Positions 6,325-20,118 of a stretch of DNA of 64,000 bases are shown here, in pieces. The stretch covers positions 128,640 to 192,639 of the forward strand of contig NZ_LMUI01000023.1 of assembly GCF_009765995.1 (NCBI RefSeq), read 5' to 3'. The notes below the pieces were generated by a model, which saw only the letters and a program-made list of their open reading frames with translations, searched no databases and was not told the DNA's origin. A program made the translations under genes and the position numbers. The first letter of the stretch is position 1; every line of letters starts with the position of its first letter. The DNA is from Methylocapsa sp. S129 (lineage in GTDB: Bacteria > Pseudomonadota > Alphaproteobacteria > Rhizobiales > Beijerinckiaceae).

Positions 6325-9036
6325 TCACGCCGCCAATTGCCGCAGCACATATTGCAGGATCCCGCCGTTGCGGAAATATTCCAGCTCGTCGAGCGTATCG
6401 ATGCGGCAGATCAGCGGGACTTTTGTGCTGGCGCCGTCGGCCGAGACGATTTCGGCCTCCATCTTCTGGCGCGGCTTCAGATCATGCGTCAGCCCGTGGA
6501 TGGTGACCTTCTCGTCGCCCTTCAGGCCCAGCGTCTGCCAGGAGGTCCCGTCCTCGAACAGGAGGGGCAGCACGCCCATGCCGACGAGATTCGAGCGATG
6601 GATGCGCTCAAAGCTCTGGGCGATCACGGCGCGCACGCCGAGCAGCTTGGTGCCCTTCGCCGCCCAGTCGCGCGACGAGCCCGTGCCATATTCGCGCCCG
6701 GCGAACACGACCAGCGGCACGCCCTCCTTCTGATAACGCATCGCGGCGTCATAGATCGCCATGCGCTCGCCCGAGGGATGATGGATGGTGTAGCCGCCCT
6801 CGACGACATTGCCGGACGAATCTTTGACCATCTGGTTCTTGATGCGGATATTGGCGAACGTGCCGCGCATCATCACTTCATGATTGCCGCGCCGCGTGCC
6901 GTATTGGTTGAAATCGACCGGGCGCACCTGATGCTCGATCAGATATTGGCCGGCCGGGCTCTGCTCTCGGATGGAGCCGGCCGGCGAGATGTGGTCGGTG
7001 GTGATGGAATCGAGGAATTCGCCAAGAATCCGCGCCCCGACAATGTCGGTCACCGGCGTCGGCTCCATCGTAATGCCCTCGAAATAGGGCGGGTTCTGCA
7101 CATAGGTCGAGCCCATGTCCCAGGCATAGGTGAGGCCGGCGGGGATCTTGACCTTGCGCCAATTGGCGTCGCCGTCGAAGACGCTCGCATATTTGGTCTT
7201 GAACATTTTGGCGGTGATCGTGTTCTCGACGAGATCGGCGATCTCCTGGCTGGTCGGCCAGATGTCGGCGAGATAGATCGGCGCGCCCGATTTGTCGTAG
7301 CCGAGCGCATCTTTCGTCAGATCGACCTGCATCGAACCGGCCAGCGCATAAGCGACGACGAGCGGCGGCGAAGCCAGATAATTGGCGCGCGTATCGGGAT
7401 TGACGCGGCCCTCGAAATTGCGATTGCCCGAGAGAACGGCGGCCGCGACAAGATTGTGTTTGGCGATGACGGACGAAATGGCTTCGGGCAGCGGACCCGA
7501 ATTGCCGATGCAGGTCGTACAGCCGAAGCCGACGACATTGAAGCCGAGTTTGTCGAGCGACTTTTGCAGCTCGGCGTCCCGCAGATATTCCTCGACGACC
7601 TGGCTGCCCGGCGCCAGCGACGTCTTGACCCACGGCTTGACCGTCAGCCCCTTGGCGACGGCATTGCGCGCCAGCAGCCCCGCCGCCATCATCACGCTCG
7701 GATTGGACGTGTTGGTGCAGGAGGTGATCGCGGCGATCACGACATCGCCATGACCGAGGTCGAAATTCGTGCCCTCGACCTTGTAGCGGTGGGCGATATC
7801 GGCGCCCTGCTTGAATTCCGTCTCCATCGCGCCGGCAAAGCCGGCCTTCGCCGTGGCCAGCAAGACCTTGTCTTGCGGGCGCTTGGGCCCCGCGATGGAG
7901 GGCGCGACTTCGCCAAGGTCCAGCGCCAGCGTATCGGTAAAGACCGGGTCGGGCGTCAGGCGCGTGCGATAGAACCCCTGCGCCTTCGCATAGGCCTCGA
8001 CCAGCGCGATGCGCGGCCCTTTGCGGCCGGACGTCTCGAGATAGCGGATCGCCTGCACGTCGACCGGGAACAGACCGCAGGTCGCGCCATATTCGGGCGC
8101 CATATTGGCGATGGTCGCGCGGTCGGCGACCGACATGGCGTTGAGGCCCGGACCGAAGAACTCGACGAATTTGCCGACCACGCCCTTCTTGCGCAGCATT
8201 TGCGTCACTGTCAGCACGAGATCGGTGGCGGTGACGCCCTCGCGCAGGTCGCCGGTCAGTTTGAAGCCGATGACTTCGGGCAACAGCATCGACAAGGGCT
8301 GGCCAAGCATCGCCGCTTCCGCCTCGATGCCGCCGACGCCCCAGCCGAGCACAGCCAGGCCATTGACCATGGTGGTGTGGCTGTCGGTGCCCACCAGCGT
8401 GTCGGGATAGGCGATCTCCGTCGTGACGCGGCCGACCTTCTCTTTGCGCGTCCACACCGTCTGCGCGAGATATTCGAGATTGACCTGATGGCAGATGCCG
8501 GTGCCGGGCGGCACGACGGCGAAATTGGAAAAGGCCTGCTGGCCCCATTTCAGGAAGCGGTAGCGCTCCTGGTTTTGCTCGTATTCGCGCTTGACGTTTT
8601 GCCCAAGCGCCTTGTTGTTGCCGAAGAAGTCAACCACCACCGAATGGTCGATGACGAGATCGACGGGCACCAGCGGATTGATCTTGTCGGGGTCGCCGCC
8701 AAGCGTCACCATCGCGTCGCGCATGGCGGCGAGGTCGACGACCGCCGGCACGCCGGTGAAATCCTGCATCAGCACGCGAGCGGGGCGGAACGCGATCTCA
8801 TGCTCCACCTTGCCGCGATTGGCGAGCCAGGCCGCGACCGCTTCGATATCGCCCTTCTTGACCGTGCGCCCGTCCTCGTTGCGCAGCAGGTTCTCCAGCA
8901 CGATTTTCATCGAATAGGGCAGTTGCGAAATGCCGGTCAGGCCGTTTTTTTCAGCGCTTTTGAGCGAAAAATACTCGTAGGTCTTGGCGCCGACGGTGAG
9001 CTTTTTGCGACATTTGAAACTGTCGAGACTGGCCAT
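6325..9036 (-). CDS. acnA: Aconitate hydratase A
   Basis: A 903-residue cytosolic aconitase, the usual AcnA length, interconverting citrate and isocitrate in the TCA cycle. The [4Fe-4S] ligand cysteines are visible in SCTNTSNPSVM and in FGCTTCIGNSGPL; the signature VGTDSHTTMVNGLAVLGWG lies near residue 205 and the swivel domain has AGREYGTGSSRDWAAKG. The start MASLDSF at 9036 has GGAG eight bases upstream; longer frames only add unconserved sequence. It is divergent from ccmA with about 118 bases between the starts, an arrangement common in Rhizobiales. Confidence 0.97.
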   Translation of the reverse strand: MASLDSFKCRKKLTVGAKTYEYFSLKSAEKNGLTGISQLPYSMKIVLENLLRNEDGRTVKKGDIEAVAAWLANRGKVEHEIAFRPARVLMQDFTGVPAVVDLAAMRDAMVTLGGDPDKINPLVPVDLVIDHSVVVDFFGNNKALGQNVKREYEQNQERYRFLKWGQQAFSNFAVVPPGTGICHQVNLEYLAQTVWTRKEKVGRVTTEIAYPDTLVGTDSHTTMVNGLAVLGWGVGGIEAEAAMLGQPLSMLLPEVIGFKLTGDLREGVTATDLVLTVTQMLRKKGVVGKFVEFFGPGLNAMSVADRATIANMAPEYGATCGLFPVDVQAIRYLETSGRKGPRIALVEAYAKAQGFYRTRLTPDPVFTDTLALDLGEVAPSIAGPKRPQDKVLLATAKAGFAGAMETEFKQGADIAHRYKVEGTNFDLGHGDVVIAAITSCTNTSNPSVMMAAGLLARNAVAKGLTVKPWVKTSLAPGSQVVEEYLRDAELQKSLDKLGFNVVGFGCTTCIGNSGPLPEAISSVIAKHNLVAAAVLSGNRNFEGRVNPDTRANYLASPPLVVAYALAGSMQVDLTKDALGYDKSGAPIYLADIWPTSQEIADLVENTITAKMFKTKYASVFDGDANWRKVKIPAGLTYAWDMGSTYVQNPPYFEGITMEPTPVTDIVGARILGEFLDSITTDHISPAGSIREQSPAGQYLIEHQVRPVDFNQYGTRRGNHEVMMRGTFANIRIKNQMVKDSSGNVVEGGYTIHHPSGERMAIYDAAMRYQKEGVPLVVFAGREYGTGSSRDWAAKGTKLLGVRAVIAQSFERIHRSNLVGMGVLPLLFEDGTSWQTLGLKGDEKVTIHGLTHDLKPRQKMEAEIVSADGASTKVPLICRIDTLDELEYFRNGGILQYVLRQLAA

Positions 9037-9154
9037 CGGCTGAACTCCGGAGGGGGATGAAGGGGGATTAGAACTCTTATAGATAAGTTCGTCCTGCCGG
9101 GCTACACAACAATGTCGCGAAATCGCCCAAAAAGGCGTCGCCGGAGAAGTCTCG

Positions 9155-9796
9155 ATGCGCTTGGTTGGCGCCAACATTGCGATCGAGCGGGGCGGACGGC
9201 GGCTATTTTCCGATCTGTCGTTTGCAGCGGCGGCGGGCGAGGCGCTGATCGTCACCGGCCCCAATGGCGCGGGCAAATCGAGCCTGCTGCGCGCCATCGC
9301 CGGCCTGCTGCGCGTCGCGGCGGGCGCGGTGGTTCTCGAAGGCGGCGACGATGAGCTGCGCTTGGGCGAACAAGCCCATTATCTCGGTCATGCCGATGCG
9401 CTGAAAGGGGCGCTGACGGCGCGCGAGAATCTCGAATTCTGGGCGGCGATGCTGGGCGCCGAAAAAACGCCCGCTGACGCCCGGACTGGCCCAATGCCCA
9501 TCGGCGCCGCGCTCGATCGTCTGGGCCTCGCCCATGTCGTCGATTTTCCCGTCAATTTTCTCTCGGCGGGTCAGAGGCGGCGGGTCGCCCTGGCGCGGCT
9601 TCTTGTCGCATATCGTCCGCTCTGGCTGCTGGACGAGCCGACGAGCGCGCTCGACGCCGCCGCGCAGGCGCGCCTTGGCGAAATCATGCGCGCGCATCTG
9701 GCCGGCGGCGGCATGATTGTCGCGGCGACGCACGCGCCGCTCGGTCTAGACGGGCGCGAATTGAAGCTGGGCGCACAGGAGCTCATCGGCTCATGA
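9155..9796 (+). CDS. ccmA: Heme exporter ABC ATPase CcmA
   Basis: A 213-residue ATPase of the CcmABCD complex, which works with CcmC to release holo-CcmE for cytochrome c maturation. Walker A is GPNGAGKS (residues 35-42), the ABC signature is LSAGQRRR (136-143) and Walker B is PLWLLDEPT (155-163). The length is typical for CcmA, which is short for an ABC ATPase. It overlaps ccmB by four bases (ATGA), indicating translational coupling. It lies divergent from acnA. No ccmC follows ccmB here. Confidence 0.95.
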   Translation: MRLVGANIAIERGGRRLFSDLSFAAAAGEALIVTGPNGAGKSSLLRAIAGLLRVAAGAVVLEGGDDELRLGEQAHYLGHADALKGALTARENLEFWAAMLGAEKTPADARTGPMPIGAALDRLGLAHVVDFPVNFLSAGQRRRVALARLLVAYRPLWLLDEPTSALDAAAQARLGEIMRAHLAGGGMIVAATHAPLGLDGRELKLGAQELIGS

Positions 9797-10464
9797 AAAG
9801 CGCTGCGACCGCCCTGTTCATGCGCGAATGGCGGATCGCCCGCCGCATCGGCGGCGGCGCTTCCACCGGCGCGGTGTTTTTCCTGATTCTTGTCGCGCTG
9901 ATGCCGTTTGCGATCGGCCCGGACCTTAATCTTTTGGCGCGCATCGGCCCGGCGATCCTGTGGATCGCCGCCCTGCTGTCGACGCTGCTCGGCCTCGACC
10001 GCCTGTTTCAGGGCGACGAGGAGGATGGCTCGCTCGATCTGCTGGCGCAGGCGCGCCTGCCGCTCGAAGTCGTCGTCCTCGTGAAATGCGCCGCGCATTG
10101 GACGGCGGGCGTCTTGCCGCTGATTGTCGTCAGCCCGCTGTTCGGCCTGATGCTGGCGCTGGACGCCCAAGCGCTCGGCCTCGTCGCCGCCAGCCTTCTC
10201 GTCGGCACGCCGGCGCTGACGATGATCGGCGCGATCGGCGCCGCGCTGACGGTGTCGCTGCGGCGCGGCGGGCTGCTGATGGCGGTGCTGGTGCTGCCGC
10301 TGACGATCCCCGTCCTGATCTTTGGCGTATCGGCCGCTTCGGCGGCCAGCGGCGGCGCGGCGCCGCTCCTGGCGCCCTTCCTCGCTCTCGCCGCGCTCTC
10401 GCTCGCCGCTCTCGCAGGCGCGCCATTCGCCGCGGCGGCGGCTTTGCGGCTGGCGGGGGAATAG
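9793..10464 (+). CDS. ccmB: Heme exporter permease CcmB
   Basis: A 223-residue integral membrane protein with six hydrophobic segments. The N terminus FMREWRIARR and the loop LFQGDEEDGSLDLLA are characteristic of CcmB. It forms the membrane channel of the CcmAB transporter and is translationally coupled to ccmA. In most Rhizobiales ccmC, ccmD and ccmG/dsbE follow directly; here the next gene, 32 bases on, is a GMC oxidoreductase, so the maturation locus is split in this genome. Confidence 0.93.
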   Translation: MKSAATALFMREWRIARRIGGGASTGAVFFLILVALMPFAIGPDLNLLARIGPAILWIAALLSTLLGLDRLFQGDEEDGSLDLLAQARLPLEVVVLVKCAAHWTAGVLPLIVVSPLFGLMLALDAQALGLVAASLLVGTPALTMIGAIGAALTVSLRRGGLLMAVLVLPLTIPVLIFGVSAASAASGGAAPLLAPFLALAALSLAALAGAPFAAAAALRLAGE

Positions 10465-10496
10465 GCGCCGGCGATTCGTCCCGCTAAGAAGCGACG

Positions 10497-12167
10497 ATGA
10501 AGCGGGAAGACAGCGAACAATTCGATTATATCGTCGTCGGCGCCGGCTCGGCCGGATGCGTGCTCGCCGACCGCCTGACCGAAGACGGGCGATCGAGCGT
10601 CCTCGTCGTCGAATTTGGCGGCTCCGACCGCTCCGTCTTCATCCAGATGCCCGGCGCACTGTCGATCCCGATGAACACCAGGAAATACAACTGGCGCTAT
10701 GAGAGCGAGCCGGAGCCGCATATGGACGGCCGCCGCTTTCACATCCCGCGCGGCAAGGTTTTGGGCGGGTCGTCGTCGATCAACGGCCTCGTCTATGTCA
10801 GAGGCAATCCGCACGATTTCGATCGCTGGGAGGAAGAAGGCGCATCAGGCTGGGGCTATCGCAACGTGCTGCCCTATTTTAGGCGCGCGGAAGGACGGCG
10901 CGACGGCGCCGACGCCTATCGCGGCGGCGAGGGACCGCTCGCGACCCGCTACGGGCCGACCACCAATCCGCTCTATGACGTCTTTGTCGAAGCAGGCCGC
11001 CAGGCCGGCTATGGCGTGACGCCCGACATTAACGGCGAGCGGCAGGAAGGTTTCGGCCGGTTCGACATGACGGTGAAGGACGGCGTGCGCTGGTCGGCCG
11101 CCAACGCCTATCTCAGGCCCGCCATGAAGCGCGCCAATCTCAAGGTCGTCGCCCATGCGCTGGCGACGCAGGTTCTCTTCGACGGGCGCCGCGCGATCGG
11201 CGTGCGCTATGCGCGAGGCGGCCGCGACCATCTGGCGCTGGCGCGGCGCGAAGTGATCCTCAGCGGCGGCCCGATCAATTCGCCGCAGCTTCTCAAATTA
11301 TCAGGGATCGGGCCGGCGCAGGAACTGCGGGCGCTCGACATTCCTGTCGTGCATGATCTGCCCGGCGTCGGCGAAAATCTGCAGGACCATCTCGAATTCT
11401 ATTTTCAGGTCGCCTCCAAACAGCCGATCACGCTCTATGGCCAGACTGGCCTGTTCTCGCGCGGCCTGATCGGCCTGCAATGGCTGTTGCGCGGGCGCGG
11501 CCATGGTGCGACCAACCATTTCGAGACGGGCGGCTTCATCCGCTCGCGGGCGGGCGTGCGCTACGCCGACATCCAGTATCATTTCCTGCCGCTCGCGGTG
11601 AGCTATGACGGCGTCGGCATGGCGAGCGAGCATGGCTTTCAGGCCCATGTCGGCCCGCTGCGCTCCAAGAGCCGGGGCTGGGTGCGCCTGAAATCGCCCA
11701 ACCCGCGCGATTATCCCCGCATCCAGTTCAACTATATGAGCCATGCCGACGACTGGACCGAGATGCGCGCCTGCGTGCGCCTGACGCGCGAGATTTTCGC
11801 GCAAAGCGCCTTCGATCCCTATCGCGGCCGCGAGATCAGGCCGGGCGCCGAAGTCGTCAGCGACGAGGCGATCGACGCCTTCGTGCGCGCCCATGTCGAG
11901 AGCGCCTATCATCCCTCGGGCACATGCAAGATGGGCGCGAAAGACGATTCCATGGCGGTGGTCGATTCCGAAGCGCGCGTGTTCGGCATCGACGGCCTGC
12001 GCGTCGTCGATAGCGCGATCATGCCGTCGGTCACCTCGGGCAATCTCAACGCGCCGACCATCATGATCGGCGAAAAAACCGCCGACGCCATTCTCGGCCG
12101 CCCCCCGCTGGCCGCCTCCAACGCGCCCTATTACCAGGCGCCGGACTGGGAGACGGCGCAAAGGTGA
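10497..12167 (+). CDS. betA: Choline dehydrogenase (GMC oxidoreductase)
   Basis: A 556-residue FAD-dependent glucose-methanol-choline oxidoreductase. The Rossmann motif VVGAGSAGCVLADRL is at residues 13-27; GKVLGGSSSINGLVYVRGN is the GMC signature around residue 85. The active-site histidine is in ESAYHPSGTCKMG and the second active-site position in SGNLNAPTIMIGEK near the C terminus. The EPEPHMDGRR segment, the two domains and the ending LGRPPLAASN resemble alphaproteobacterial BetA closely, so oxidation of choline to betaine aldehyde is the likely role. However betB, betI and a choline transporter are not beside it, so another alcohol substrate is possible. Confidence 0.85.
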   Translation: MKREDSEQFDYIVVGAGSAGCVLADRLTEDGRSSVLVVEFGGSDRSVFIQMPGALSIPMNTRKYNWRYESEPEPHMDGRRFHIPRGKVLGGSSSINGLVYVRGNPHDFDRWEEEGASGWGYRNVLPYFRRAEGRRDGADAYRGGEGPLATRYGPTTNPLYDVFVEAGRQAGYGVTPDINGERQEGFGRFDMTVKDGVRWSAANAYLRPAMKRANLKVVAHALATQVLFDGRRAIGVRYARGGRDHLALARREVILSGGPINSPQLLKLSGIGPAQELRALDIPVVHDLPGVGENLQDHLEFYFQVASKQPITLYGQTGLFSRGLIGLQWLLRGRGHGATNHFETGGFIRSRAGVRYADIQYHFLPLAVSYDGVGMASEHGFQAHVGPLRSKSRGWVRLKSPNPRDYPRIQFNYMSHADDWTEMRACVRLTREIFAQSAFDPYRGREIRPGAEVVSDEAIDAFVRAHVESAYHPSGTCKMGAKDDSMAVVDSEARVFGIDGLRVVDSAIMPSVTSGNLNAPTIMIGEKTADAILGRPPLAASNAPYYQAPDWETAQR

Positions 12168-12714
12168 GGCGCGCGGCCGGCAGACTTGCAAAAGCCTTGC
12201 AGCACGCGACGACACCAGCTTTCGCGCAAAATGCCTTTCGGCAGACTATAACGATATCAATAGCTTACGTTTCCTCCCCGCAAGCTTTTTTCAGACCACA
12301 TCGTGGAATTTCAAAGGGTTGCAAGCGAAAAAATTAAAAAAAATGCGTCTCCCGAGATTTCTCCAATGCCGATCCGATCGCCAGCCGGCATGGCGACGGC
12401 GCGAAGCAGCCAAGCCCTCCAGACGCGGGCTCCCGTCGCCATCGCCTCAATCGCTTCGCCGCCGCGCGCGATGACCGCGATGCGCTCAGCGAGGATGCGA
12501 CGGAAATGCTAAAATGTCCAGAAAATTTTTCTTAAAAACAGAAAGAGAGCCCCGGCAGGCTTTGGCGCCCAAGGTCGGCTGACAGCAAGCACCCGCAAAG
12601 CGGCGAAAATCTCACACTTTTGCGATCCGAGCGAGCTTAAACGCAGGTTCTGCCCTGCCGGATATACAATGGATATCCATTTTTCCTAAAGCCGCGCGGC
12701 CGCAAGATTTGGCG
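12168..12714. other. Gene-free interval between betA and the TIR-ATPase gene
   Basis: I find no convincing gene here. The stretch is patchy in composition, with A-rich runs around 12328-12342 and 12520-12545 inside otherwise GC-rich DNA. A 67-codon minus-strand frame (about 12300-12510) shows some coding-like character but has no recognisable product. A short palindrome GGATATCC lies at about 12671. The patchiness suggests decayed or imported sequence next to the TIR gene. Confidence 0.4.
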
Positions 12715-12765
12715 CCCTCTTCCCCTTGGTGGGAAGATGCCCGGCGAAGCCGGGCAGATGAGGGG
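12715..12765. repeat. Two-hairpin palindromic intergenic repeat, copy A
   Basis: The element begins CCCTCTTCCCC, has a first imperfect hairpin (CTTCCCC / GGGAAG), a second perfect hairpin GCCCGGC-GAA-GCCGGGC, and ends GATGAGGGG. The same architecture (start CCCTTCTCCC, two hairpins, end GATGAGGG) recurs at 15998 and, inverted, at 16113. Such CCCTTCTCCC...GGATGAGGG elements are common dispersed intergenic repeats in Rhizobiales. Confidence 0.7.
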
Positions 12766-12928
12766 AGTCGCGCGCAGCGCGACGGCTTTGAGCCTATCCG
12801 CGCGGAAACCGAAGGCGGACCGCGGCCCAAAGCTGGCCGCCCCGCGCCCCAGCGCTCATTGACATTTTCCACACGACCGCCTTGGTTGACTGAGGCCATT
12901 CGCGCGCGAAAACTGCGAGCCCGCTTTC

Positions 12929-15900
12929 ATGTCGACCGGCAAGCCGATCATCTTCATCAGCTATGCGCATGCGGATGAGCCGGATAAGCTAGGCGAGGGC
13001 GAAGTTAAATGGCTTTCTTTCGTGCAAAGCTTCCTGCAGCCGGCCGTAAAGCATGGCGTTTTCGACACTTGGGTCGACCGCCAGATGAACGGCGGCGCCA
13101 AGTGGGACACGAAGATCGAAGAATATCTTCGCGGCTGCGATATCTTCGTTTTGCTCGTGTCCCGCCATTCGATGGCGTCCAACTATATCATCGACAAAGA
13201 AATCGCGATCATTCGTGAAAGGTTGGCGAATGACGAAAACGTCTACTTCTATCCGCTGCTGCTGACCCCGACTCCCAAGGCGGGACTGGATAAAGTCACG
13301 GATATGAATCTTCGGCCGCGCGACGCCAAGCCGTTCTCTAGCTTCCCGTATAATGATCGCCTCCAGCATATGAGCGAGGCGGCTAACGAGATCGCAGAGA
13401 TCGCGCAGCAGATCATCGAGCGCAAAAGCCCATCACGATCGACTCCCCCTTCCGTCCAACCGGCCTATGTCCATACCGCCCATCTCCCCGAAACCGCCTA
13501 CGAGCGCCTCGTCGGTCGTGACGCAGAGTTGGGACGCCTCGACGACGCCTGGGCCGATTCGAGAACCAACATCCTCTCGCTCATCGCCGAAGGCGGCGCG
13601 GGCAAGTCGGCGCTCGTGAACGAATGGCTCGGGCGATTGCAGGCGGAGAACTATCGCGGCGCCGAGGCGGTGCTCGGGTGGTCGTTTTACAGCCAGGGCA
13701 CGAAGGAGCGCGCAACGTCGGCGGACGCATTCCTTGATTGGGCGCTCGACAAGCTCGGCGTCAAGCCTGCGACAACCAGCGCGACAGCCAAGGGTGACGC
13801 GGTCGCGGAAGCGATGATGCGTCGCCGCGTGCTACTCGTGCTCGATGGCGTCGAGCCGTTGCAGCATGGTCCCGGCCCGCAGCTTGGCCAGTTGAAGGAC
13901 CAGGGCCTGCGCGCCCTGCTACGGCGCTTCGCTGCGACGCCGCTGGCGCAGGCGCATGGATTGATCGTGCTGACCAGCCGGTTGGCGGTAACCGACATCG
14001 CGCGCTGGCGGGATAGCGCCGCGCCGGTCGTCGATGTCGAGAAACTGTCGAACGAAGCCGGCGCAGCGCTGCTGCGCGACAATAGCGTGTGGGGGACCGA
14101 CAGGGAGTTGAAAGCCGCGGCGCACGACTTCGGCGGCCATCCGCTCGCGCTCGGCCTGCTCGCAAGCTTCCTCAAGGAAACGCAAACCGGCGACCTGCGC
14201 CGGCGCGACCACATCCGCGCGCTTATAGCCGATTCCGACAATCCGCGACACGACCACGCCAAGCGCGTGATGGAATCCTATGAGAAGGAGTGGCTCGCCG
14301 GACAGCCCGTGCTGCTCGCGATCATGCAGTTGATCGGCCTGTTCGAACGGCCGGCGAGCGGCGATTGTCTCGCGGCGCTGCGCGCCGAGCCCGTGATCGA
14401 GGGGCTCAACGAACCGATCGTCGGCATTGATGACGACAAATGGCGCCGCGCCGTCGCACGCTTGCGCGAAGTGCGGCTGCTCGCGCCGCCGGACCCCGCT
14501 GCGCCCAACGCGCTCGACGCCCATCCGCTAGTGCGCGAATGGTTCGGCGAGCGGCTGCGAGGGACGAACGAGGCAGCATGGAAAGCCGCCCACGGGCGCC
14601 TTTACGAGCACTTGCGCGACACGACGAGGGAAGGCGACGAGCCGACGCTGACCGATCTCGCGCCGCTCTACCAAGCGATCGCCCACGGATGCAGCGCGGG
14701 ACGGCATCAAGAGGCGCTGAATTACGTATATAAGCAAAGAATTTGTCGATGGATTTACATTGTCGGTTCCCTTGACTCAGTGCTTGAATTCTATTCAAGG
14801 CATCGACTAGGGGCATCGGGTAGCGATCTGGCCGCGATCTCCTTTTTTCTTGAGTCGCTCTATACCAAGGCTGTGAAAACTCTCGATGCAATTGATCAGT
14901 GGTTTGTCATTGGGGAAGCGGCCTATTGTCTGGAGGCTCAGGGCAGATTGAGCGAGTCCCTGGAGGCCCGACGCGCGTCGGGCAGCGGCATATTGGAATT
15001 TCCGGTGGATGCGGTTACCGACGAGATTCTTCTCGGTGAAATCGAGCTGCTCACCGGCGACATTCCGGCAGCCATCGCGAGCGCAAATCGTGCGGTCGCC
15101 GCGAGCGGGTATCGGGCGATTAATCACGCGGGCATTTCTGACCGGTACCGCATGATCGGCGCCAGCACGACCCTTGCTGACGCCTTGCTTGCCGCCGGTG
15201 ATTTCCGGGAGGCGTCGAGTCTGTTTGCCGACGCGGAGAAGCGCCAGCGTCAGATACAAAGCGAAGACCGCAGGATTTATCATCAAGGAGTATCTCATCG
15301 CTGCGCGCTATTGCTTGACAAACGCCAATGGGTCTCCGCCTGCGAACGCGCCCATGCCGCCTTCGACGTTTCCGCTTATGATAAATTCCCGCATCATATC
15401 GCGGAAGACGTTCTAAACTTGGCCCGCGCCGAGTTGGGGGCGGCGCTCGCGGGCGCCGAGGCCCAACGCCGGGCGTTGTGTTTCCTGTCGTTCGGCGATC
15501 AGACTTGGCGCGGGACGAATGGAAGCGTGCAGCGCTGCTTCGACGAGTCCGTGGCGGCTCTGCGCGCCTCGGCGATCAATGCAAACCTCGTCGGTGCGCT
15601 CCTCGCCCGCGCCGCCCTCCTTCGCTGCATCGGCGATTGGCCCGGCGCGGCACGCGATCTCGACGAGGTCGAGGAGATCGCCGAGCCGGGGCCGATGCGG
15701 CTGTTTCTTTGCGACATGGCGCTTGAACGCGCGCGGCTCGCCTTCGCGCGCATCGAGGCCTTCGCGCCGCTCAACGGGCTCATCGACGATGGGCCGCCGA
15801 AGCCCGTTCTTCCGGACGCCGCTGAAGCGGAACGCCTCAAAGAGGAGGCGCGGACGAACCTCGGCATAGCGCGCAAGCTCATCACCGAATGCGGCTACCA

Positions 15901-15982
15901 CCGACGCGATGAGGAATTGGCCGAGCTGGAGGCCGTGCTCGCCGGCCAACGCCGCTTCGCCGAGTTGCCGCCGAGGGTGTGA
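12929..15982 (+). CDS. TIR / NB-ARC-like NTPase / helical-repeat STAND protein, candidate defence sensor
   Basis: A 1017-residue three-part protein. Residues 6-140 form a TIR domain (FISYAHAD; then DIFVLLVSRHSMASNYIIDKE), with E91 at the position of the catalytic glutamate of NAD-cleaving bacterial TIRs. Residues 190-560 are a STAND ATPase: LVGRDAEL, Walker A EGGAGKS (221-227), GWSFYSQGT (250-258), Walker B VLLVLDG with D306, sensor-like LIVLTSR (345-351) and GLPL-like GHPLAL (403-408), then a winged-helix-like HPLVREWF. Residues about 590-1010 are alpha-helical TPR-like repeats. By analogy with TIR-STAND immune proteins, the repeats would sense a trigger, the ATPase would oligomerise and the TIR would deplete NAD+. 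It stands alone, with no partner gene on its strand nearby. Codon composition is AT-richer over about residues 590-830. The start ATG 12929 has only a weak ribosome site. Confidence 0.85.
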   Translation: MSTGKPIIFISYAHADEPDKLGEGEVKWLSFVQSFLQPAVKHGVFDTWVDRQMNGGAKWDTKIEEYLRGCDIFVLLVSRHSMASNYIIDKEIAIIRERLANDENVYFYPLLLTPTPKAGLDKVTDMNLRPRDAKPFSSFPYNDRLQHMSEAANEIAEIAQQIIERKSPSRSTPPSVQPAYVHTAHLPETAYERLVGRDAELGRLDDAWADSRTNILSLIAEGGAGKSALVNEWLGRLQAENYRGAEAVLGWSFYSQGTKERATSADAFLDWALDKLGVKPATTSATAKGDAVAEAMMRRRVLLVLDGVEPLQHGPGPQLGQLKDQGLRALLRRFAATPLAQAHGLIVLTSRLAVTDIARWRDSAAPVVDVEKLSNEAGAALLRDNSVWGTDRELKAAAHDFGGHPLALGLLASFLKETQTGDLRRRDHIRALIADSDNPRHDHAKRVMESYEKEWLAGQPVLLAIMQLIGLFERPASGDCLAALRAEPVIEGLNEPIVGIDDDKWRRAVARLREVRLLAPPDPAAPNALDAHPLVREWFGERLRGTNEAAWKAAHGRLYEHLRDTTREGDEPTLTDLAPLYQAIAHGCSAGRHQEALNYVYKQRICRWIYIVGSLDSVLEFYSRHRLGASGSDLAAISFFLESLYTKAVKTLDAIDQWFVIGEAAYCLEAQGRLSESLEARRASGSGILEFPVDAVTDEILLGEIELLTGDIPAAIASANRAVAASGYRAINHAGISDRYRMIGASTTLADALLAAGDFREASSLFADAEKRQRQIQSEDRRIYHQGVSHRCALLLDKRQWVSACERAHAAFDVSAYDKFPHHIAEDVLNLARAELGAALAGAEAQRRALCFLSFGDQTWRGTNGSVQRCFDESVAALRASAINANLVGALLARAALLRCIGDWPGAARDLDEVEEIAEPGPMRLFLCDMALERARLAFARIEAFAPLNGLIDDGPPKPVLPDAAEAERLKEEARTNLGIARKLITECGYHRRDEELAELEAVLAGQRRFAELPPRV

Positions 15983-15997
15983 GGCGCGGCCCGCGAG

Positions 15998-16052
15998 CCC
16001 TTCTCCCGCTGCGCGGGAGAAGGTGACCCGACGAAGTCGGGTCGGATGAGGG
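15998..16052. repeat. Two-hairpin palindromic intergenic repeat, copy B
   Basis: Starts 15 bases after the TIR-ATPase stop. Hairpin 1 is CTTCTCCCGC-TGC-GCGGGAGAAG, hairpin 2 is GACCCGAC-GAA-GTCGGGTC, and the element ends GGATGAGGG. Both stems are perfect, so it may also act as a transcription terminator or mRNA-end stabiliser for the TIR gene, although no T-run follows. Confidence 0.8.
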
Positions 16053-16112
16053 CCTGTCGGCGTGATAGCGCGAAAAAGGATGCGGCGGTTTAGGTCGCGA
16101 CCAGGGCGACCG

Positions 16113-16165
16113 CCCTCATCCGTCATGCTCCGCATGACACCTTCTCCCGCCAAGCGGGAGAAGGG
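16113..16165. repeat. Two-hairpin palindromic intergenic repeat, copy C (inverted)
   Basis: Same element as copy B in the opposite orientation: CCCTCATCC, hairpin GTCATGC-TCC-GCATGAC, then CTTCTCCCGC-CAA-GCGGGAGAAG. Copies B and C thus form a large inverted pair separated by 60 bases between the TIR-ATPase gene and the DHH gene. The hairpin-2 sequences differ between copies while pairing is kept, as expected of structure-conserved repeats. Confidence 0.8.
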
Positions 16166-16255
16166 AGCGCCTGTCCCCGCCTGCCCGCCCCTCCGCTAAC
16201 CCGATATTCAGCTTTTTGGCCGACAAGCGACGTTTTACGCCTTAAGGAGCGGCCC

Positions 16256-17194
16256 GTGCCCCCTACCCAATTCCGTTTGGTGACCCGCAGCGATTTCGAC
16301 GGCCTGGTGTGCGGCGTTCTTCTCAAAGAATTGAACCTGATCGACGAGATCACCTTCGTTCATCCCAAAGACATGCAGGACGGCAAAGTCGCCATTTCGG
16401 GGCGCGACATCATCACCAACCTGCCCTATGTCGACGGCTGCCATCTGGCCTTCGACCATCATTCGAGCGAACTCGACCGCGGCGGCGGCGAAATGCCGCC
16501 CAATCACATCATCGACCCCGACGCTCTGTCGGCAGCCCGCGTCGTCTACCGCTATTTCGGCGGCCAGCCGCATTTCCCGGGCGTTCGCGAGGATATTATG
16601 CGCGCGGTCGACAAGGCCGATTCGGCGCAATTCACAGGCGATGAAATTCTCCGCCCGCAAGGCTGGGCCTTCCTCAGCTTCCTGATGGATTCGCGCACGG
16701 GGCTCGGCCGCTTCCGGCAGTTTCGCATCTCCAATTACGAACTGATGATGCAATTGATCGACCGCTGCCGCACCCATACGGTCGAGGAGATTCTCGAATC
16801 GCCCGACGTCAAGGAGCGCGTCGATCTCTATCGCCAGCACGACGCGCCTTTTCGCGAGCAGGTGCTGCGTTGCGCGCGCGTTTACCGAGACCTCGTCGTC
16901 CTCGATCTTCGCCAGGAGGAGACGATCTACGCCGGCAATCGCTTCATGATCTACGCTTTGTTTCCGCAGTGCCGCGTCTCGATGCATGTGCTGTGGGGCG
17001 TCAAGCAGCAAAACACCGTCTTCGCCATCGGCAAGTCGATCATCGACCGCGGCTCGCCCATCGATGTCGGCTCGGTTTGCCTGAGCTATGGCGGGGGCGG
17101 CCATGAGGCGGCCGGAACCTGCCAGGTCGACAATGCCCGCGCCGCCGATGTGATGGCGGAACTGATCGGCAAGCTCGCGGTGCGTGCGCACTGA
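16256..17194 (+). CDS. DHH family phosphoesterase
   Basis: A 312-residue DHH-DHHA1 protein. The metal-binding motifs are SDFDG (residues 12-16) and DHHSSE (67-72); the DHHA1 substrate-binding loop is GGGGHEAAGTCQV near the C terminus. The family includes oligoribonucleases/pAp phosphatases and exopolyphosphatase-like enzymes, so it probably cleaves a small phosphodiester or polyphosphate in the cytosol; the exact substrate is not readable. The GTG start at 16256 is supported by AAGGAG at 16243-16248. It is likely monocistronic. Confidence 0.88.
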   Translation: MPPTQFRLVTRSDFDGLVCGVLLKELNLIDEITFVHPKDMQDGKVAISGRDIITNLPYVDGCHLAFDHHSSELDRGGGEMPPNHIIDPDALSAARVVYRYFGGQPHFPGVREDIMRAVDKADSAQFTGDEILRPQGWAFLSFLMDSRTGLGRFRQFRISNYELMMQLIDRCRTHTVEEILESPDVKERVDLYRQHDAPFREQVLRCARVYRDLVVLDLRQEETIYAGNRFMIYALFPQCRVSMHVLWGVKQQNTVFAIGKSIIDRGSPIDVGSVCLSYGGGGHEAAGTCQVDNARAADVMAELIGKLAVRAH

Positions 17195-17354
17195 CGCGTT
17201 CCGAGGCCGCGCCGCCCCTTCTGAAGATTTGTATCGCCGACACGAGACGCAGTCACGCCGAAGGCGCCGTAACGAAGTGAAGGACCGGCGAAGTCGGTTG
17301 ACGGCGGCTCGGCGGCGTGGCCCTTCTCTCCGCGCGACCCGCGCCCAACCGATC

Positions 17355-18116
17355 CTAGGCCATCTCCAACATATCCGAAAAAATCGCGACAAGGTCCGTC
17401 CCGCCTTCCTCGTCGACGAGCGTCAGCGCCGCCTCGATATGGTCGAGATGGGCCATGGCGAGCGTGGTCGCGCGTTCGGAATCGCCGACCGCCAGGGCTT
17501 CGACGATCGGGTCATGCTCGCGCAACGAGCAATCGAGTTGCGTCGTCGTCGCATAGGCGGCCAAGGCGAGCGACATTTGCGCGATGAGGTCGCGCAGCAT
17601 CGAGACGAAAACGCCGTTTCCCGCCAGTTCCGCGAGCTTCAGGTGGAAATTTCCCGACAGGCGGATTTCCGCGCTGCGGTCCTTGGCGGCGACGGCGTGG
17701 TGCTCGGCGATCAGATGCGCCCTGAGCGACGCGGCCGCTTCATGGCGTTCGCCTTCGGGGAGCGCCGCGACGAGACGCACGACCTCCCTTTCGAGCAGCC
17801 GGCGCGCCTGGAAGACGTCGCGCGTTTCCTTGGCCGAGGGCCGCGCGACAAAAGCGCCGCGATTGGGTTCGAGTTGCACGATCCGCCGCTGCGACAGGAT
17901 CAGCAGCACTTTGCGGATGCGCGCGCGGTTGAGCTTAAAGATTTCCGCGAGCTGTTCCTCCACCAGCTTGACGCCAGGCGCCAGCCGGCGCTCGGCGACC
18001 GCCTGAATCACGGCGTTGAACATCCGCTCCTCGGCCGCCGACAGGCCGACGATCCGCTGGTCCGTTTCCCTCGCCGGCGCGTTATTAGCGGCGAGCGAAG
18101 ACTTGCGTCGTGTCAT
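17355..18116 (-). CDS. GntR family regulator, FCD type (island copy 1)
   Basis: A 253-residue regulator with an N-terminal winged HTH (about residues 28-95, including AEIFKLNRARIRKVLLILSQ and LEPNRGAFVARPS) and a C-terminal helical FCD ligand-binding domain (HLKLAELAGN and LREHDPIVEAL, carrying metal-binding-type histidines). It follows the hydrolase gene on the minus strand after 54 bases. It is a candidate to bind the TTGTTWACAA sites in this island. The ligand is unknown and is probably the imported substrate or a breakdown product. Confidence 0.88.
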   Translation of the reverse strand: MTRRKSSLAANNAPARETDQRIVGLSAAEERMFNAVIQAVAERRLAPGVKLVEEQLAEIFKLNRARIRKVLLILSQRRIVQLEPNRGAFVARPSAKETRDVFQARRLLEREVVRLVAALPEGERHEAAASLRAHLIAEHHAVAAKDRSAEIRLSGNFHLKLAELAGNGVFVSMLRDLIAQMSLALAAYATTTQLDCSLREHDPIVEALAVGDSERATTLAMAHLDHIEAALTLVDEEGGTDLVAIFSDMLEMA

Positions 18117-18170
18117 GAATCTTACCGGTTCTCGAAAACGCTCTCGGGCTCAACGCCGAAACGATTCCCT

Positions 18171-18995
18171 TCATTGTGTCAGTTCGGCCATGCTCCTCGC
18201 AAGAACGCCGTCGCCAGCGGCGAGCGTTTCGAGGATCGAAAAATGGTCCGCGCCTTCGACCGGTAGGATACCCGGTCGCCAACCCTGGGCCCTCAAAACC
18301 TCGCCGAAATCGCGCGACTGGCGCTGGATTTCGGGACGCTCTTTGTCGCCAAAAGCGAGCACGAGAGGTTTTGGCGCCCCCACCGGCCGGTGCAGCGGAG
18401 AAAACTGGCGGGCGTCCTCCGCCGACATGCCGATCGCATCGTTGAGACTCGACAGGCGGATCGGCTCGAGATCGTAGATTCCGCTGATCAGCAAGCCGCC
18501 CCTCACCTGCGGCAGGTCCAAGGCATAGGCCATGAGATGGGCCCCTGTCGAGATTCCGCACAGCCATACCTCAGACTTGCCGCTCACGATTGTTAACAAT
18601 TTCTCGGCGAGCCATTGCGTCATCGCGATCGCTTCCGCGCATATGTCGGCCATGCCTGCGGCCGGCGCCAGCGTATATTCGCCGATCGCGACGTTCAGGC
18701 CATGCGCGAGCAGACCTGCCGCGATGAAAGCCTGCCCCTCCTTGTCGTTCCATTGCCAATAGCCGCCGTGCAGGAACAGAATTGTCGGCCGCGAGGGCTG
18801 GCCGCAGGGAAAGATGTCGAGGCGCTGGCGAACGCCCTCGCCATAGCGCAGATCGCGCAGGCAAGGCCTGGCGGCGTAAAGAGCGCCGCTTCGGTCCGCC
18901 CAGCGCGCGAGATAGCCCTCCCAGCCGGGCACGACAGCGCGATTGTTGTATGCGGCGTCGAGGCCGGCGCGGTCCATTCCCCGATAGAAATTCAT
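18171..18995 (-). CDS. Alpha/beta hydrolase, arylformamidase-like
   Basis: A 274-residue alpha/beta hydrolase with the oxyanion motif FLHGGYW (about residue 75), nucleophile elbow GISTG (S149), and the C-terminal GADHFSIL histidine. Relatives with HGGYW and an N-terminal FYRGMDRAGLDAAYNN are annotated as kynurenine formamidase-like esterases, so amide or ester hydrolysis of a small substrate is likely. I prefer the ATG at 18993-18995 (MNFYRG), where homologues begin and TTGGACAG precedes; ATG 19019 would add eight residues. It is divergent from the first oxygenase gene across a repeat-containing gap and upstream of a GntR gene. Confidence 0.8.
   Translation of the reverse strand: MNFYRGMDRAGLDAAYNNRAVVPGWEGYLARWADRSGALYAARPCLRDLRYGEGVRQRLDIFPCGQPSRPTILFLHGGYWQWNDKEGQAFIAAGLLAHGLNVAIGEYTLAPAAGMADICAEAIAMTQWLAEKLLTIVSGKSEVWLCGISTGAHLMAYALDLPQVRGGLLISGIYDLEPIRLSSLNDAIGMSAEDARQFSPLHRPVGAPKPLVLAFGDKERPEIQRQSRDFGEVLRAQGWRPGILPVEGADHFSILETLAAGDGVLARSMAELTQ
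18588..18600. promoter_or_regulatory. Intragenic copy of the GATTGTTAACAAT operator-like site
   Basis: GATTGTTAACAAT inside the hydrolase coding region matches 13 of 14 bases of the perfect palindrome at 20917-20930. It lies about 400 bases downstream of the hydrolase start. FCD-type GntR proteins bind TNGTNNNACNA-like palindromes, so this may be an auxiliary site. A chance occurrence is possible but the sequence is markedly AT-rich for this gene. Confidence 0.4.
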
Positions 18996-19043
18996 GCGTT
19001 CTGTCCAAAAAAGCGCCATGGCGTTGCTGATTATTTAATCTTG

Positions 19044-19068
19044 TATTGTTTACACTATTGTTTACAAA
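19044..19068. promoter_or_regulatory. Tandem TATTGTTTACA direct repeats in the divergent promoter
   Basis: TATTGTTTACA occurs at 19044-19054 and again at 19056-19066, 12 bases apart, in the AT-rich gap between the hydrolase gene and the first oxygenase gene. The second copy extends to TTGTTTACAA, an imperfect palindrome of the same type as TTGTTAACAA at 20917-20930. Probable binding sites for one of the two island GntR proteins, controlling both divergent transcripts. Confidence 0.55.
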
Positions 19069-19104
19069 AATTCAACATCGAAAGACGCAGCGAAGGAGGC
19101 GCAT

Positions 19105-20118
19105 ATGGCCGCGCTCGAACAAGTCCCGATCGTCGATCTCCAGCCATTCCTGGCCGGAACGCCCGAAGAAAAAAAGCGCGTCGCCGGGTTGGTCGACAGG
19201 ACGAACCGCGAAATCGGCTTTCTCGTCATTACCGGCCATGGCTTCGATCCCGATCTTTTGTCGGGCTGGTTCGACGCGTCGCGCCGGTTCTTCGAGCAAT
19301 CCGCCGAGGCCAAGCTGAAATATGTCCCGGCGACGCCGGAATCGCATCAAGGCTATCATCGCCTCGCCGCCTCGGGGCTGGCCGCCAAGGAGGGGCGGGA
19401 GGCGCCGCCGGATCTGCGCGAATATTTCATGATCGGCCGAATGGATGTCGCCGATCCCTATTTCCACACGGAGGCGGCGCGCCGCTTTTATCGGGAGAAT
19501 GGCTGGCCGGCCTTCCCGCCCGATTTCCGTCTGTTGGGCGAGAATTATTACCGCGCCGTCGAAAATCTCGGCCGCCAGCTCATGGCCTTGTTCGCGGCGG
19601 CGCTGGGCCTCGACGAAGCCTATTTCAAGCCTGCGATCGACAAGCACTTTTCCGTCGTCAGTTCGATCTATTATCCCGCCCAGCGCGAGGCGCCCGCGCC
19701 CGGTCAATTGCGCGCGGGCGCGCATACCGATTACGGCGCCCTGACGATCCTCGCCCCGAGCGATTCGCCGGGCGGCCTGCAGGTGCGCATGCCGTCCGGC
19801 GAATGGGCCGACGTGCCGTTCGTCCCGGGCGCTTTCGTCATCAACATCGGCGATATGATGCAGCGCTGGACCAACGACCGCTGGCTCTCGAACATGCATC
19901 GCGTCGTCAATCCGCCCGCGCAAAGCGCCGCGCCGCCGCGTCCGCGCCAGTCGATCGCTTTCTTCCTGCATCCCAATTACGACGCGGTCGTCGAATGCCT
20001 GCCCACCTGCCAGAGCGCGGATCATCCGGCCCAATACGAGCCGATCCGCGCGGGCGATTACATGATGACGAAGGAAGCCGCGATCGCCGCCGCCAAGCCG
20101 TCAAAATCGGCGGCCTGA
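19105..20118 (+). CDS. Isopenicillin-N-synthase-family 2-oxoglutarate/Fe(II) oxygenase 1
   Basis: A 337-residue oxygenase. The DIOX_N-like N terminus begins VPIVDLQPFLAGTPEEK; the double-stranded beta-helix core holds the iron triad H207 and D209 (AHTDYGALTIL) and H265 (MHRVVNP), and R281-x-S283 binds the 2-oxoglutarate carboxylate. The family hydroxylates or desaturates small molecules; bacterial members include thymine-7-hydroxylase-like and purine-acting enzymes, but the substrate here is unknown. A paralogue lies 1 kb downstream. It is divergent from the hydrolase and followed convergently by the second GntR gene. Confidence 0.9.
   Translation: MAALEQVPIVDLQPFLAGTPEEKKRVAGLVDRTNREIGFLVITGHGFDPDLLSGWFDASRRFFEQSAEAKLKYVPATPESHQGYHRLAASGLAAKEGREAPPDLREYFMIGRMDVADPYFHTEAARRFYRENGWPAFPPDFRLLGENYYRAVENLGRQLMALFAAALGLDEAYFKPAIDKHFSVVSSIYYPAQREAPAPGQLRAGAHTDYGALTILAPSDSPGGLQVRMPSGEWADVPFVPGAFVINIGDMMQRWTNDRWLSNMHRVVNPPAQSAAPPRPRQSIAFFLHPNYDAVVECLPTCQSADHPAQYEPIRAGDYMMTKEAAIAAAKPSKSAA

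What the first reader, a model, noticed from the sequence alone, without database searches (positions are those of the whole stretch)
12929..15982. Standalone TIR / STAND ATPase / helical-repeat protein, a probable uncharacterised antiphage sensor
Seen: an N-terminal TIR fold with a glutamate (E91) where NADase TIRs have theirs, a complete STAND ATPase with Walker A, Walker B and GLPL-like motifs including the unusual GWSFYSQGT, and about 400 residues of TPR-like repeats. Known: TIR-STAND proteins act as abortive-infection sensors in bacteria and NLR-like receptors in plants. Inferred: the single gene is a complete defence system triggered through its repeats. The trigger and exact subfamily appear uncharacterised to my knowledge.
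Basis: partly seen in the sequence, partly recalled or inferred. Interest (0 to 1): 0.72.

Follow-up and report, generated by a model that had tools for sequence, protein, structure and literature searches.

The report
Modular NLR-like bacterial receptor gene
This gene encodes a bacterial protein built like plant and animal immune receptors (an effector domain, a molecular switch and a repeat-built sensor); sampled relatives keep the switch but exchange the effector and vary the sensor, which suggests a fast-evolving self-contained alarm, probably against viruses, although no activity has been shown.

Summary
In detail: 12929..15982 is one 1017-aa ORF with an N-terminal TIR (Pfam TIR_2, E 2.6e-10), a STAND-type NTPase and a divergent repeat half. 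Glu91 aligns with the Glu of AbTIR's W-x-x-x-E, with one inserted residue.

New here: the NTPase-plus-repeat core is a patchy clade (11 of 397 genomes of the family, fragments included; 17 of 398 of the phylum) whose N-terminus is swapped: several TIR types, SEFIR, the N-terminal part of defence candidate PDC-M54A, membrane segments. In one related genus 4 of 39 genomes carry it beside thiC; 5 of 34 others examined have that site empty. There the switch diverges like most neighbouring genes, the TIR is exchanged, and the repeats are hypervariable. Window versus its closest relative shows the same trough.

The defence reading is partly supported. Defence-island context was not found (no background control). 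NADase activity, trigger and phage protection are untested; both structure models were low confidence.

The parts
12929..15982 (+). TIR-STAND-repeat receptor gene, 1017 aa
   Evidence: Open reading frame; homologue over nearly the whole length, L030, 41-45% identity
12950..13315 (+). TIR domain, residues 8-129 (putative NAD-consuming effector)
   Evidence: Pfam TIR_2 E 2.6e-10; ThsB TIR model E 5.6e-14; TIR profile to AbTIR E 3.2e-21
13199..13201 (+). Glu91, equivalent of the TIR W-x-x-x-E glutamate with a one-residue insertion
   Evidence: Alignment; 12 of 12 TIR rows have Glu in this or the preceding column
13505..13966 (+). P-loop NTPase (nucleotide-binding) domain, residues 193-346
   Evidence: AAA_16 E 2.9e-6, below Pfam cut-off; motif residues invariant in 8 of 8
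13592..13606 (+). Walker A GGAGK, residues 222-226
   Evidence: G222, G225, K226 invariant in 8 of 8
13679..13699 (+). Family signature WSFYSQG, residues 251-257
   Evidence: W251, S252, Q256, G257 invariant in the 8 rows of A2
13829..13855 (+). Walker B VLLVLDGVE, residues 301-309
   Evidence: D306, G307, E309 invariant in 8 of 8
14516..14536 (+). DAHPLVR, residues 530-536: MHD-like motif of a winged-helix part (label by analogy, recalled)
   Evidence: D530, H532, R536 invariant in 8 of 8
14720..15598 (+). Divergent TPR-like segment (putative sensor), about residues 598-890
   Evidence: 36% identity to L009 between segments of 83% and 68%; breaks at residues 598 and 890; dN 0.69 in 661-900
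15599..15979 (+). Conserved C-terminal cap, about residues 891-1017
   Evidence: 68% identity to L009; 83% over residues 907-1017 to the remnant in L010/L037
15993..16170 (.). Intergenic inverted repeat (33-nt arms, 88%) between the gene and the next ORF on its strand

Best explanation
A self-contained NLR-like receptor. In the resting cell the STAND NTPase holds the protein closed. A foreign, probably phage, protein binds the fast-evolving TPR-like segment (about residues 600-890); nucleotide exchange in the NTPase then drives oligomerisation and clusters the N-terminal TIR domains, which consume NAD+ and stop growth of the infected cell. Shown here: the domains, the motif residues, effector swapping on a conserved switch, and divergence concentrated in the repeat segment. 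Inferred from known STAND and TIR proteins: autoinhibition, oligomerisation, NAD+ cleavage, abortive infection. Unknown: the ligand.
For: TIR with the conserved Glu and NTPase motifs. One core carries different N-termini: TIR_2 types; a SEFIR-type domain in L032 (Pfam TIR_2 45.7 and SEFIR 40.7 bits, both over cut-off; PADLOC bSEFIR 1.9e-48); the N-terminal part of PDC-M54A at 2.3e-52 in L082; N-termini without a Pfam match in L042 and L092. In the window's genus 3 of 11 genomes have the core with three different effectors: ThsB-type TIR, SEFIR, 'SFPGEHR' TIR. Conversely L033 has the window's TIR type (52% identity) in front of another NTPase. Patchy presence: 11 of 397, 4 of 385, 17 of 398 genomes. 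At one site in genus g18: thiC-n7 distance 55-71 bp in 5 of 34 genomes without the gene against about 3.4-4.2 kb in the 4 with it. There (6 pairs): NTPase-WHD dS 0.28-0.43, identity 0.88-0.91; repeats identity 0.47-0.67, dN 0.22-0.43; TIR of L035/L131 dS 0.20 (five flanking genes 0.43-0.74) but of L034/L035 dS 2.93 (same five 0.13-0.58). Window vs L009: 83/36/68% identity in three segments; 0 of 100 shuffles, scanned on a coarser grid, fit as well. Two control pairs of membrane-anchored relatives have no such trough: L087/L088 (overall 0.73, as L034/L035) 0.65-0.88 and L084/L086 (overall 0.59, as window/L009) 0.54-0.80 in the repeats.
Against: No defence-island context seen; no match in phage records, no relative in viral contigs, plasmid matches only in the TIR. 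Relatives with hydrophobic N-termini in f90 sit in housekeeping-like synteny, so the core is not always accessory. One of ten flanking genes of L034/L035 (n9) is itself divergent (dS 1.59, identity 0.59), so fast change near the site is not unique to this gene. In two of six allele pairs the repeats' dS (0.55, 0.58) lies within the flank range. The four-allele tree of the repeats does not reject the species tree (p-AU 0.09), so exchange of the sensor is not proven. dN/dS stayed below 1 in every window where it could be computed, so positive selection is not shown. The window gene has no same-site allele to compare.
Confidence: 0.68

Rival explanations
1. Housekeeping or stress signalling: a MalT/AfsR-like STAND regulator in which the TIR is a protein-interaction domain, responding to a metabolite or cell protein.
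For: Ordinary metabolic neighbours of the window gene and of sampled homologues; relatives with hydrophobic N-termini in conserved synteny; repeats of relatives resemble the MalT TPR model, below its cut-off.
Against: Presence in few genomes, empty sites in some close relatives, effector swapping and divergence concentrated in the repeats are not expected of a housekeeping regulator; no DNA-binding family among the Pfam matches at E <= 1.
Confidence: 0.14
2. Thoeris-like signalling: the TIR makes a nucleotide messenger that activates a separate effector encoded elsewhere.
For: The best PADLOC match of the TIR is a ThsB model.
Against: No ThsA match among the 10 window neighbours scanned (the rest of the genome was not searched for ThsA); the TIR is fused to its own sensor and is replaced by other N-termini in relatives, so a dedicated partner seems unlikely.
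Confidence: 0.1
3. Allorecognition: the receptor senses a polymorphic protein of other strains or of mobile elements, like fungal NLR incompatibility genes, rather than phage.
For: Alternative alleles at one chromosomal site with hypervariable repeats resemble polymorphic recognition loci; the parallel is drawn for bacteria in PMC10907252 (passages seen).
Against: No partner locus was looked for or found; nothing here separates phage from other non-self ligands.
Confidence: 0.08

Closest known systems
Avs/AVAST proteins, e.g. Avs5 (PMC12931631: passages and the section on sensing-domain variability seen)
   Same: Tripartite effector - STAND NTPase - TPR-type sensor; variable C-terminal repeats proposed to recognise different phage ligands
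   Different: Avs5 has Sir2 and nSTAND3; neither an Avs model nor nSTAND3 is among this protein's matches at E <= 1
Bacterial TIR-AP-ATPase-TPR proteins of conflict systems (PMC7159879, PMC8195603: passages seen)
   Same: TIR fused to a STAND NTPase with C-terminal TPRs; displacement of effector domains is described as a theme
   Different: The passage seen places such a protein beside peptide-processing and vWA/MoxR genes; this gene stands alone, and NB-ARC is not among its Pfam matches
Thoeris ThsB
   Same: TIR type
   Different: Fused to NTPase and sensor; no ThsA match among 10 neighbours
bSEFIR and PDC-M54A (PADLOC names)
   Same: Their N-terminal domains occur on the same receptor core in L032 and L082
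   Different: The window protein carries TIR instead
Plant TIR-NLRs such as RPP1 and Roq1
   Same: TIR - nucleotide switch - repeat sensor; the TIR profile matches their TIRs
   Different: LRRs rather than TPRs (recalled); none is among the matches of the core profile at E <= 1
[quoted passage not shown] text not held)
   Different: Not read, so overlap with the allele pattern reported here cannot be judged

Membership tests
TIR domain NADase | TIR sequence family | tested here: met
   PF13676 41.3 bits, cut-off 28; PDB TIRs by profile
TIR domain NADase | Glutamate at the catalytic position | tested here: met
   E91 pairs with the AbTIR W-x-x-x-E Glu with one inserted residue
TIR domain NADase | TIR fold | tested here: inconclusive
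   Model pLDDT 50.7; no Foldseek match at E <= 0.001, although many of the weak top matches are TIRs
TIR domain NADase | NAD+ cleavage | not testable with these tools
   Needs biochemistry
STAND NTPase | Walker A, Walker B, sensor Arg, GLPL-like and winged-helix motifs | tested here: met
   11 chosen motif residues identical in 8 of 8 rows; motif names are recalled
STAND NTPase | Match to a curated NTPase model above cut-off | tested here: not met
   Window protein: AAA_16 28.3/32.6, NACHT 18.2/26.7; relatives L034 (NB-ARC 24.4/23.5) and L082 (AAA_16 39.1/32.6) do pass
Avs (AVAST 1-5) | Match to Avs models | tested here: not met
   No Avs among PADLOC matches at E <= 1
Avs (AVAST 1-5) | Tripartite effector-STAND-repeat architecture | tested here: met
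Thoeris | ThsA partner gene nearby | tested here: not met
   None among 10 neighbours scanned
NLR-like immune receptor | Exchangeable effector on a conserved switch | tested here: met
NLR-like immune receptor | Sensor more variable than switch | tested here: met
Anti-phage defence system | Defence-island context | tested here: not met
   no background control was run
Anti-phage defence system | Protection from phage | not testable with these tools
   Needs plating assays

The most novel reading that the evidence does not exclude
An uncatalogued clade of bacterial NLR-like receptors behaves like a plant resistance-gene or fungal incompatibility locus: at a fixed chromosomal site, alternative alleles share one NTPase switch and C-terminal cap but carry exchanged effector domains and hypervariable, possibly cassette-exchanged, repeat sensors, so that single-gene immune receptors with new input and new output are assembled by recombination.
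Probability: 0.4. Interest if true: 0.78.

Novelty: new variant of a known kind. Interest (0 to 1): 0.6.

Why it matters
TIR-STAND-repeat proteins are a known kind, but the NTPase and sensor of this clade match no model of the defence catalogue searched (PADLOC 2023), and the copies sampled do not lie in evident defence islands, so island-based searches could overlook them. A site where species of one genus hold an empty site or one of several alleles offers ready-made pairs for asking which residues of a bacterial NLR-like sensor decide what it detects, and whether one switch can drive unrelated effectors.

Tried and rejected
Structure: full-length AlphaFold2 with three rows (pLDDT 40.6) and TIR alone (pLDDT 50.7) were too poor; the Foldseek search of the latter gave no match at E <= 0.001. 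I draw nothing from them beyond 'inconclusive'.

Insertion-site test at the window locus: the ORF 16256-17194 next downstream is in 1 of 11 genus genomes. acnA-ccmA-ccmB are largely kept, but no GMC oxidoreductase was found by tblastn (E <= 1e-8) in any of the 10 relatives' stretches fetched around ccmB (two of these end within 0.7-1.4 kb of ccmB). The block right of ccmB is therefore different, and I found no clean empty site for the window gene.

Defence islands: 139 neighbour ORFs within 6 kb of 18 loci. I dropped 6 antisense ORFs lying inside core genes and scanned 133. PADLOC at E <= 1e-15 gave 23 families, 24 member-matches, 12 names, e.g. SspA, DndA, PycC, mad3. mad3 and AriA also hit the window's own ABC ATPase, so such names are weak evidence. 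No matched control loci were run, so enrichment was not measured. The genes were called by a simple codon-bias script.

Sensor exchange: topology tests on four alleles. Flanks: both alternatives to the species tree rejected. NTPase: species tree best, neither alternative rejected (p-AU 0.11, 0.06). Cap: one alternative rejected (0.024), one not (0.06). Repeats: unresolved, species tree not rejected (0.09). Exchange of the sensor stays a possibility only. Periodicity of variable sites: permutation p 0.049 in 660-820, 0.32 in 840-900, 0.25 in the NTPase; not used.

The thiC interval as a defence hotspot: in the eight intervals read, occupants look by eye like a carbonic anhydrase, a SulP-like transporter, a glutaminase and a VapBC-like pair among others; not used. 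A guess that the L042 N-terminus is DUF4062-like (the Swarozyc domain; PMC13174449, abstract and passages seen) found no Pfam support. A FxsC-type link is far below its cut-off (24.3 of 130).

Literature searches. The string WSFYSQG is in 0 papers of the library. Two relevant Avs papers are not held.
Full report
What is there. One ORF of 1017 aa fills 12929..15982 on the + strand. Pfam finds TIR_2 on residues 8-129 above its cut-off, weaker AAA_16/AAA_22/NACHT matches within 193-384 below cut-off, and only traces of TPR. PADLOC gives TIR models and nothing for the rest; NCBIfam gives a weak FxsC N-terminal (TIR-like) match. The gene appears to stand alone: the GMC oxidoreductase ORF ends 761 bp before it and the next likely gene on its strand begins 273 bp after it, beyond an inverted repeat. 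Of ten neighbours scanned, eight are dihydroxy-acid dehydratase, DUF2332, aconitase, an ABC ATPase, CcmB, GMC oxidoreductase, an FCD-domain regulator and a 2OG-Fe(II) oxygenase; two have no Pfam match at 1e-10. The only PADLOC matches at 1e-6 are those of the ABC ATPase.

The family. Profile searches with the NTPase-plus-repeat core (alignment A2) at E <= 1e-25 find it in 3 of 11 genomes of the genus, 11 of 397 of the family, 4 of 385 of the class and 17 of 398 of the phylum, 11 of those 17 in one family, f90. A search with the whole protein at E <= 1e-10 found 10 of 298 in the family and 3 of 297 in the order. All counts include the window's genome, and some matches are fragments (e.g. G074, G237). 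Two candidates per genome at most were scored in the large searches, so they say little about copy number. Phage records give no match, plasmid records match only in the TIR (6 records), and viral contigs gave no relative. Across 8 aligned cores, 11 chosen motif residues of the NTPase and winged-helix region are identical.

Effectors are swapped. N-termini on this core include TIR_2 domains of several types (window, L030, L031, L034, L035, L036, L041, L076, L078-L081); a SEFIR-type domain in L032 that passes Pfam's TIR_2 and SEFIR cut-offs and matches PADLOC bSEFIR at 1.9e-48; a region matching the N-terminal part of the PADLOC candidate PDC-M54A at 2.3e-52 in L082, whose biochemical nature was not tested; stretches without Pfam match (L042, L092); and hydrophobic segments in six loci (L084-L089). 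Conversely, L033 joins the window's TIR type to another NTPase. In the window's own genus the three genomes with the core carry three different effectors.

One site, several alleles. In genus g18, 4 of 39 genomes hold the core (a fifth match is to the TIR region only), each between the same gene n7 and thiC. thiC stretches were compared for these four and for 34 others, 38 of 39 in all. In five of the 34 (L164-L167, L177) thiC and n7 are 55-71 bp apart, i.e. an empty site. In the rest the distance is larger (168 bp in two), n7 was not found, or, in six, none of the listed neighbours was found downstream of thiC. For all six allele pairs the NTPase to winged-helix part is 88-91% identical with dS 0.28-0.43, inside the range of five flanking genes (0.13-0.74). 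The repeats (681-900) are 47-67% identical with dN 0.22-0.43 and dS 0.55-1.33, the two lowest values lying within the flank range. The cap is 75-85% identical. The TIRs follow neither: L035 and L131 share one (dS 0.20, less than their flanks), L034 has a divergent one (dS 2.93 to L035, saturated to L131), and L132 has a TIR of another type that does not align, in a frame-broken reading. This is good evidence of effector exchange. For the sensor it shows excess divergence; the tree test does not prove exchange, and dN/dS stays below 1. Against a special status of the gene, one of ten flanking pairs of L034/L035, n9, is also divergent (dS 1.59; the other nine 0.10-0.58).

The window gene fits the same picture. 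Against its closest relative found, L009 (a Xanthobacteraceae MAG contig, starting at residue 385), a three-segment model places breaks at residues 598 and 890 with identities 0.83, 0.36 and 0.68; 0 of 100 shuffles, scanned on a coarser grid, fit as well. dN is 0.12 in 385-600, 0.69 in 661-900 and 0.30 in 901-1017. Two control pairs of relatives with hydrophobic N-termini lack so deep a trough: L087/L088, with the same overall identity as L034/L035 (0.73), stays at 0.65-0.88 in the repeats, and L084/L086, with that of window/L009 (0.59), at 0.54-0.80. Truncated copies exist: L039 retains a TIR-region fragment and L037/L010 (one and the same stretch) only the cap.

Mechanism. From established knowledge of STAND receptors and TIR enzymes, the likely cycle is ligand binding to the repeats, nucleotide-driven oligomerisation, TIR clustering, NAD+ loss and growth arrest. 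The sequence evidence supports the parts, the modularity and the fast-changing sensor; every catalytic and physiological step is inferred. The main results against an anti-phage role are the lack of defence-island neighbours (no background control) and the f90 relatives in housekeeping-like synteny.

Known or new. The architecture is known (PMC7159879, PMC8195603, PMC12931631; passages or a section seen). Variable sensors are proposed for Avs5 in the last of these. What I did not find in the ten searches listed under Tried and rejected is this NTPase clade, its effector range, or same-site alleles that differ in effector and sensor while keeping the switch; [quoted passage not shown] I therefore file the family as a new variant of a known kind.

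Noticed in passing
Own genome G000, contig C36, 64.9-79.9 kb (loci L094, L095): Five TIR_2 matches within about 15 kb, in frames of 1011, 1379, 469, 210 and 164 aa: a possible TIR-rich defence region of the same genome. Of six C36 ORFs scanned, PADLOC matched one (a TIR model) at 1e-6.
   Followed up: partly
Own genome G000, contig C5 near 132 kb (L096:10693-11172 and 12067-15165): A ThsB-like TIR ORF lies near a 1033-aa ORF that matches caspase and DEAD-helicase defence models (PDC-M23B, HamB, caspase).
   Followed up: partly
L084-L089 (family f90 genomes): The same NTPase-repeat core with N-terminal hydrophobic segments in conserved synteny; neighbours scanned in L087 include a PolB-type 3'-5' exonuclease, SspB, a RadA-like ATPase and a Colicin_V/CvpA protein. 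Its role is unclear.
   Followed up: partly
L034, L035, L131, L132, sensor region before the cap: An in-frame insertion in the repeat segment reads like a translated intergenic palindromic repeat (SLRAEGEAIQSGG...), present in several alleles; the identification is by eye.
   Followed up: no
window 15993-16170: A palindromic GC-rich element with 33-nt arms, 88% complementary, follows the gene. No Rfam match in 9000-20000.
   Followed up: partly
window 9793-17194: In the genus relatives ccmB is kept in 11 of 11 genomes, but GMC oxidoreductase was not found beside it in the 10 stretches fetched, and the 16256-17194 ORF (no Pfam match at 1e-10) is in 1 of 11 genomes: an accessory block or a rearrangement.
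   Followed up: partly
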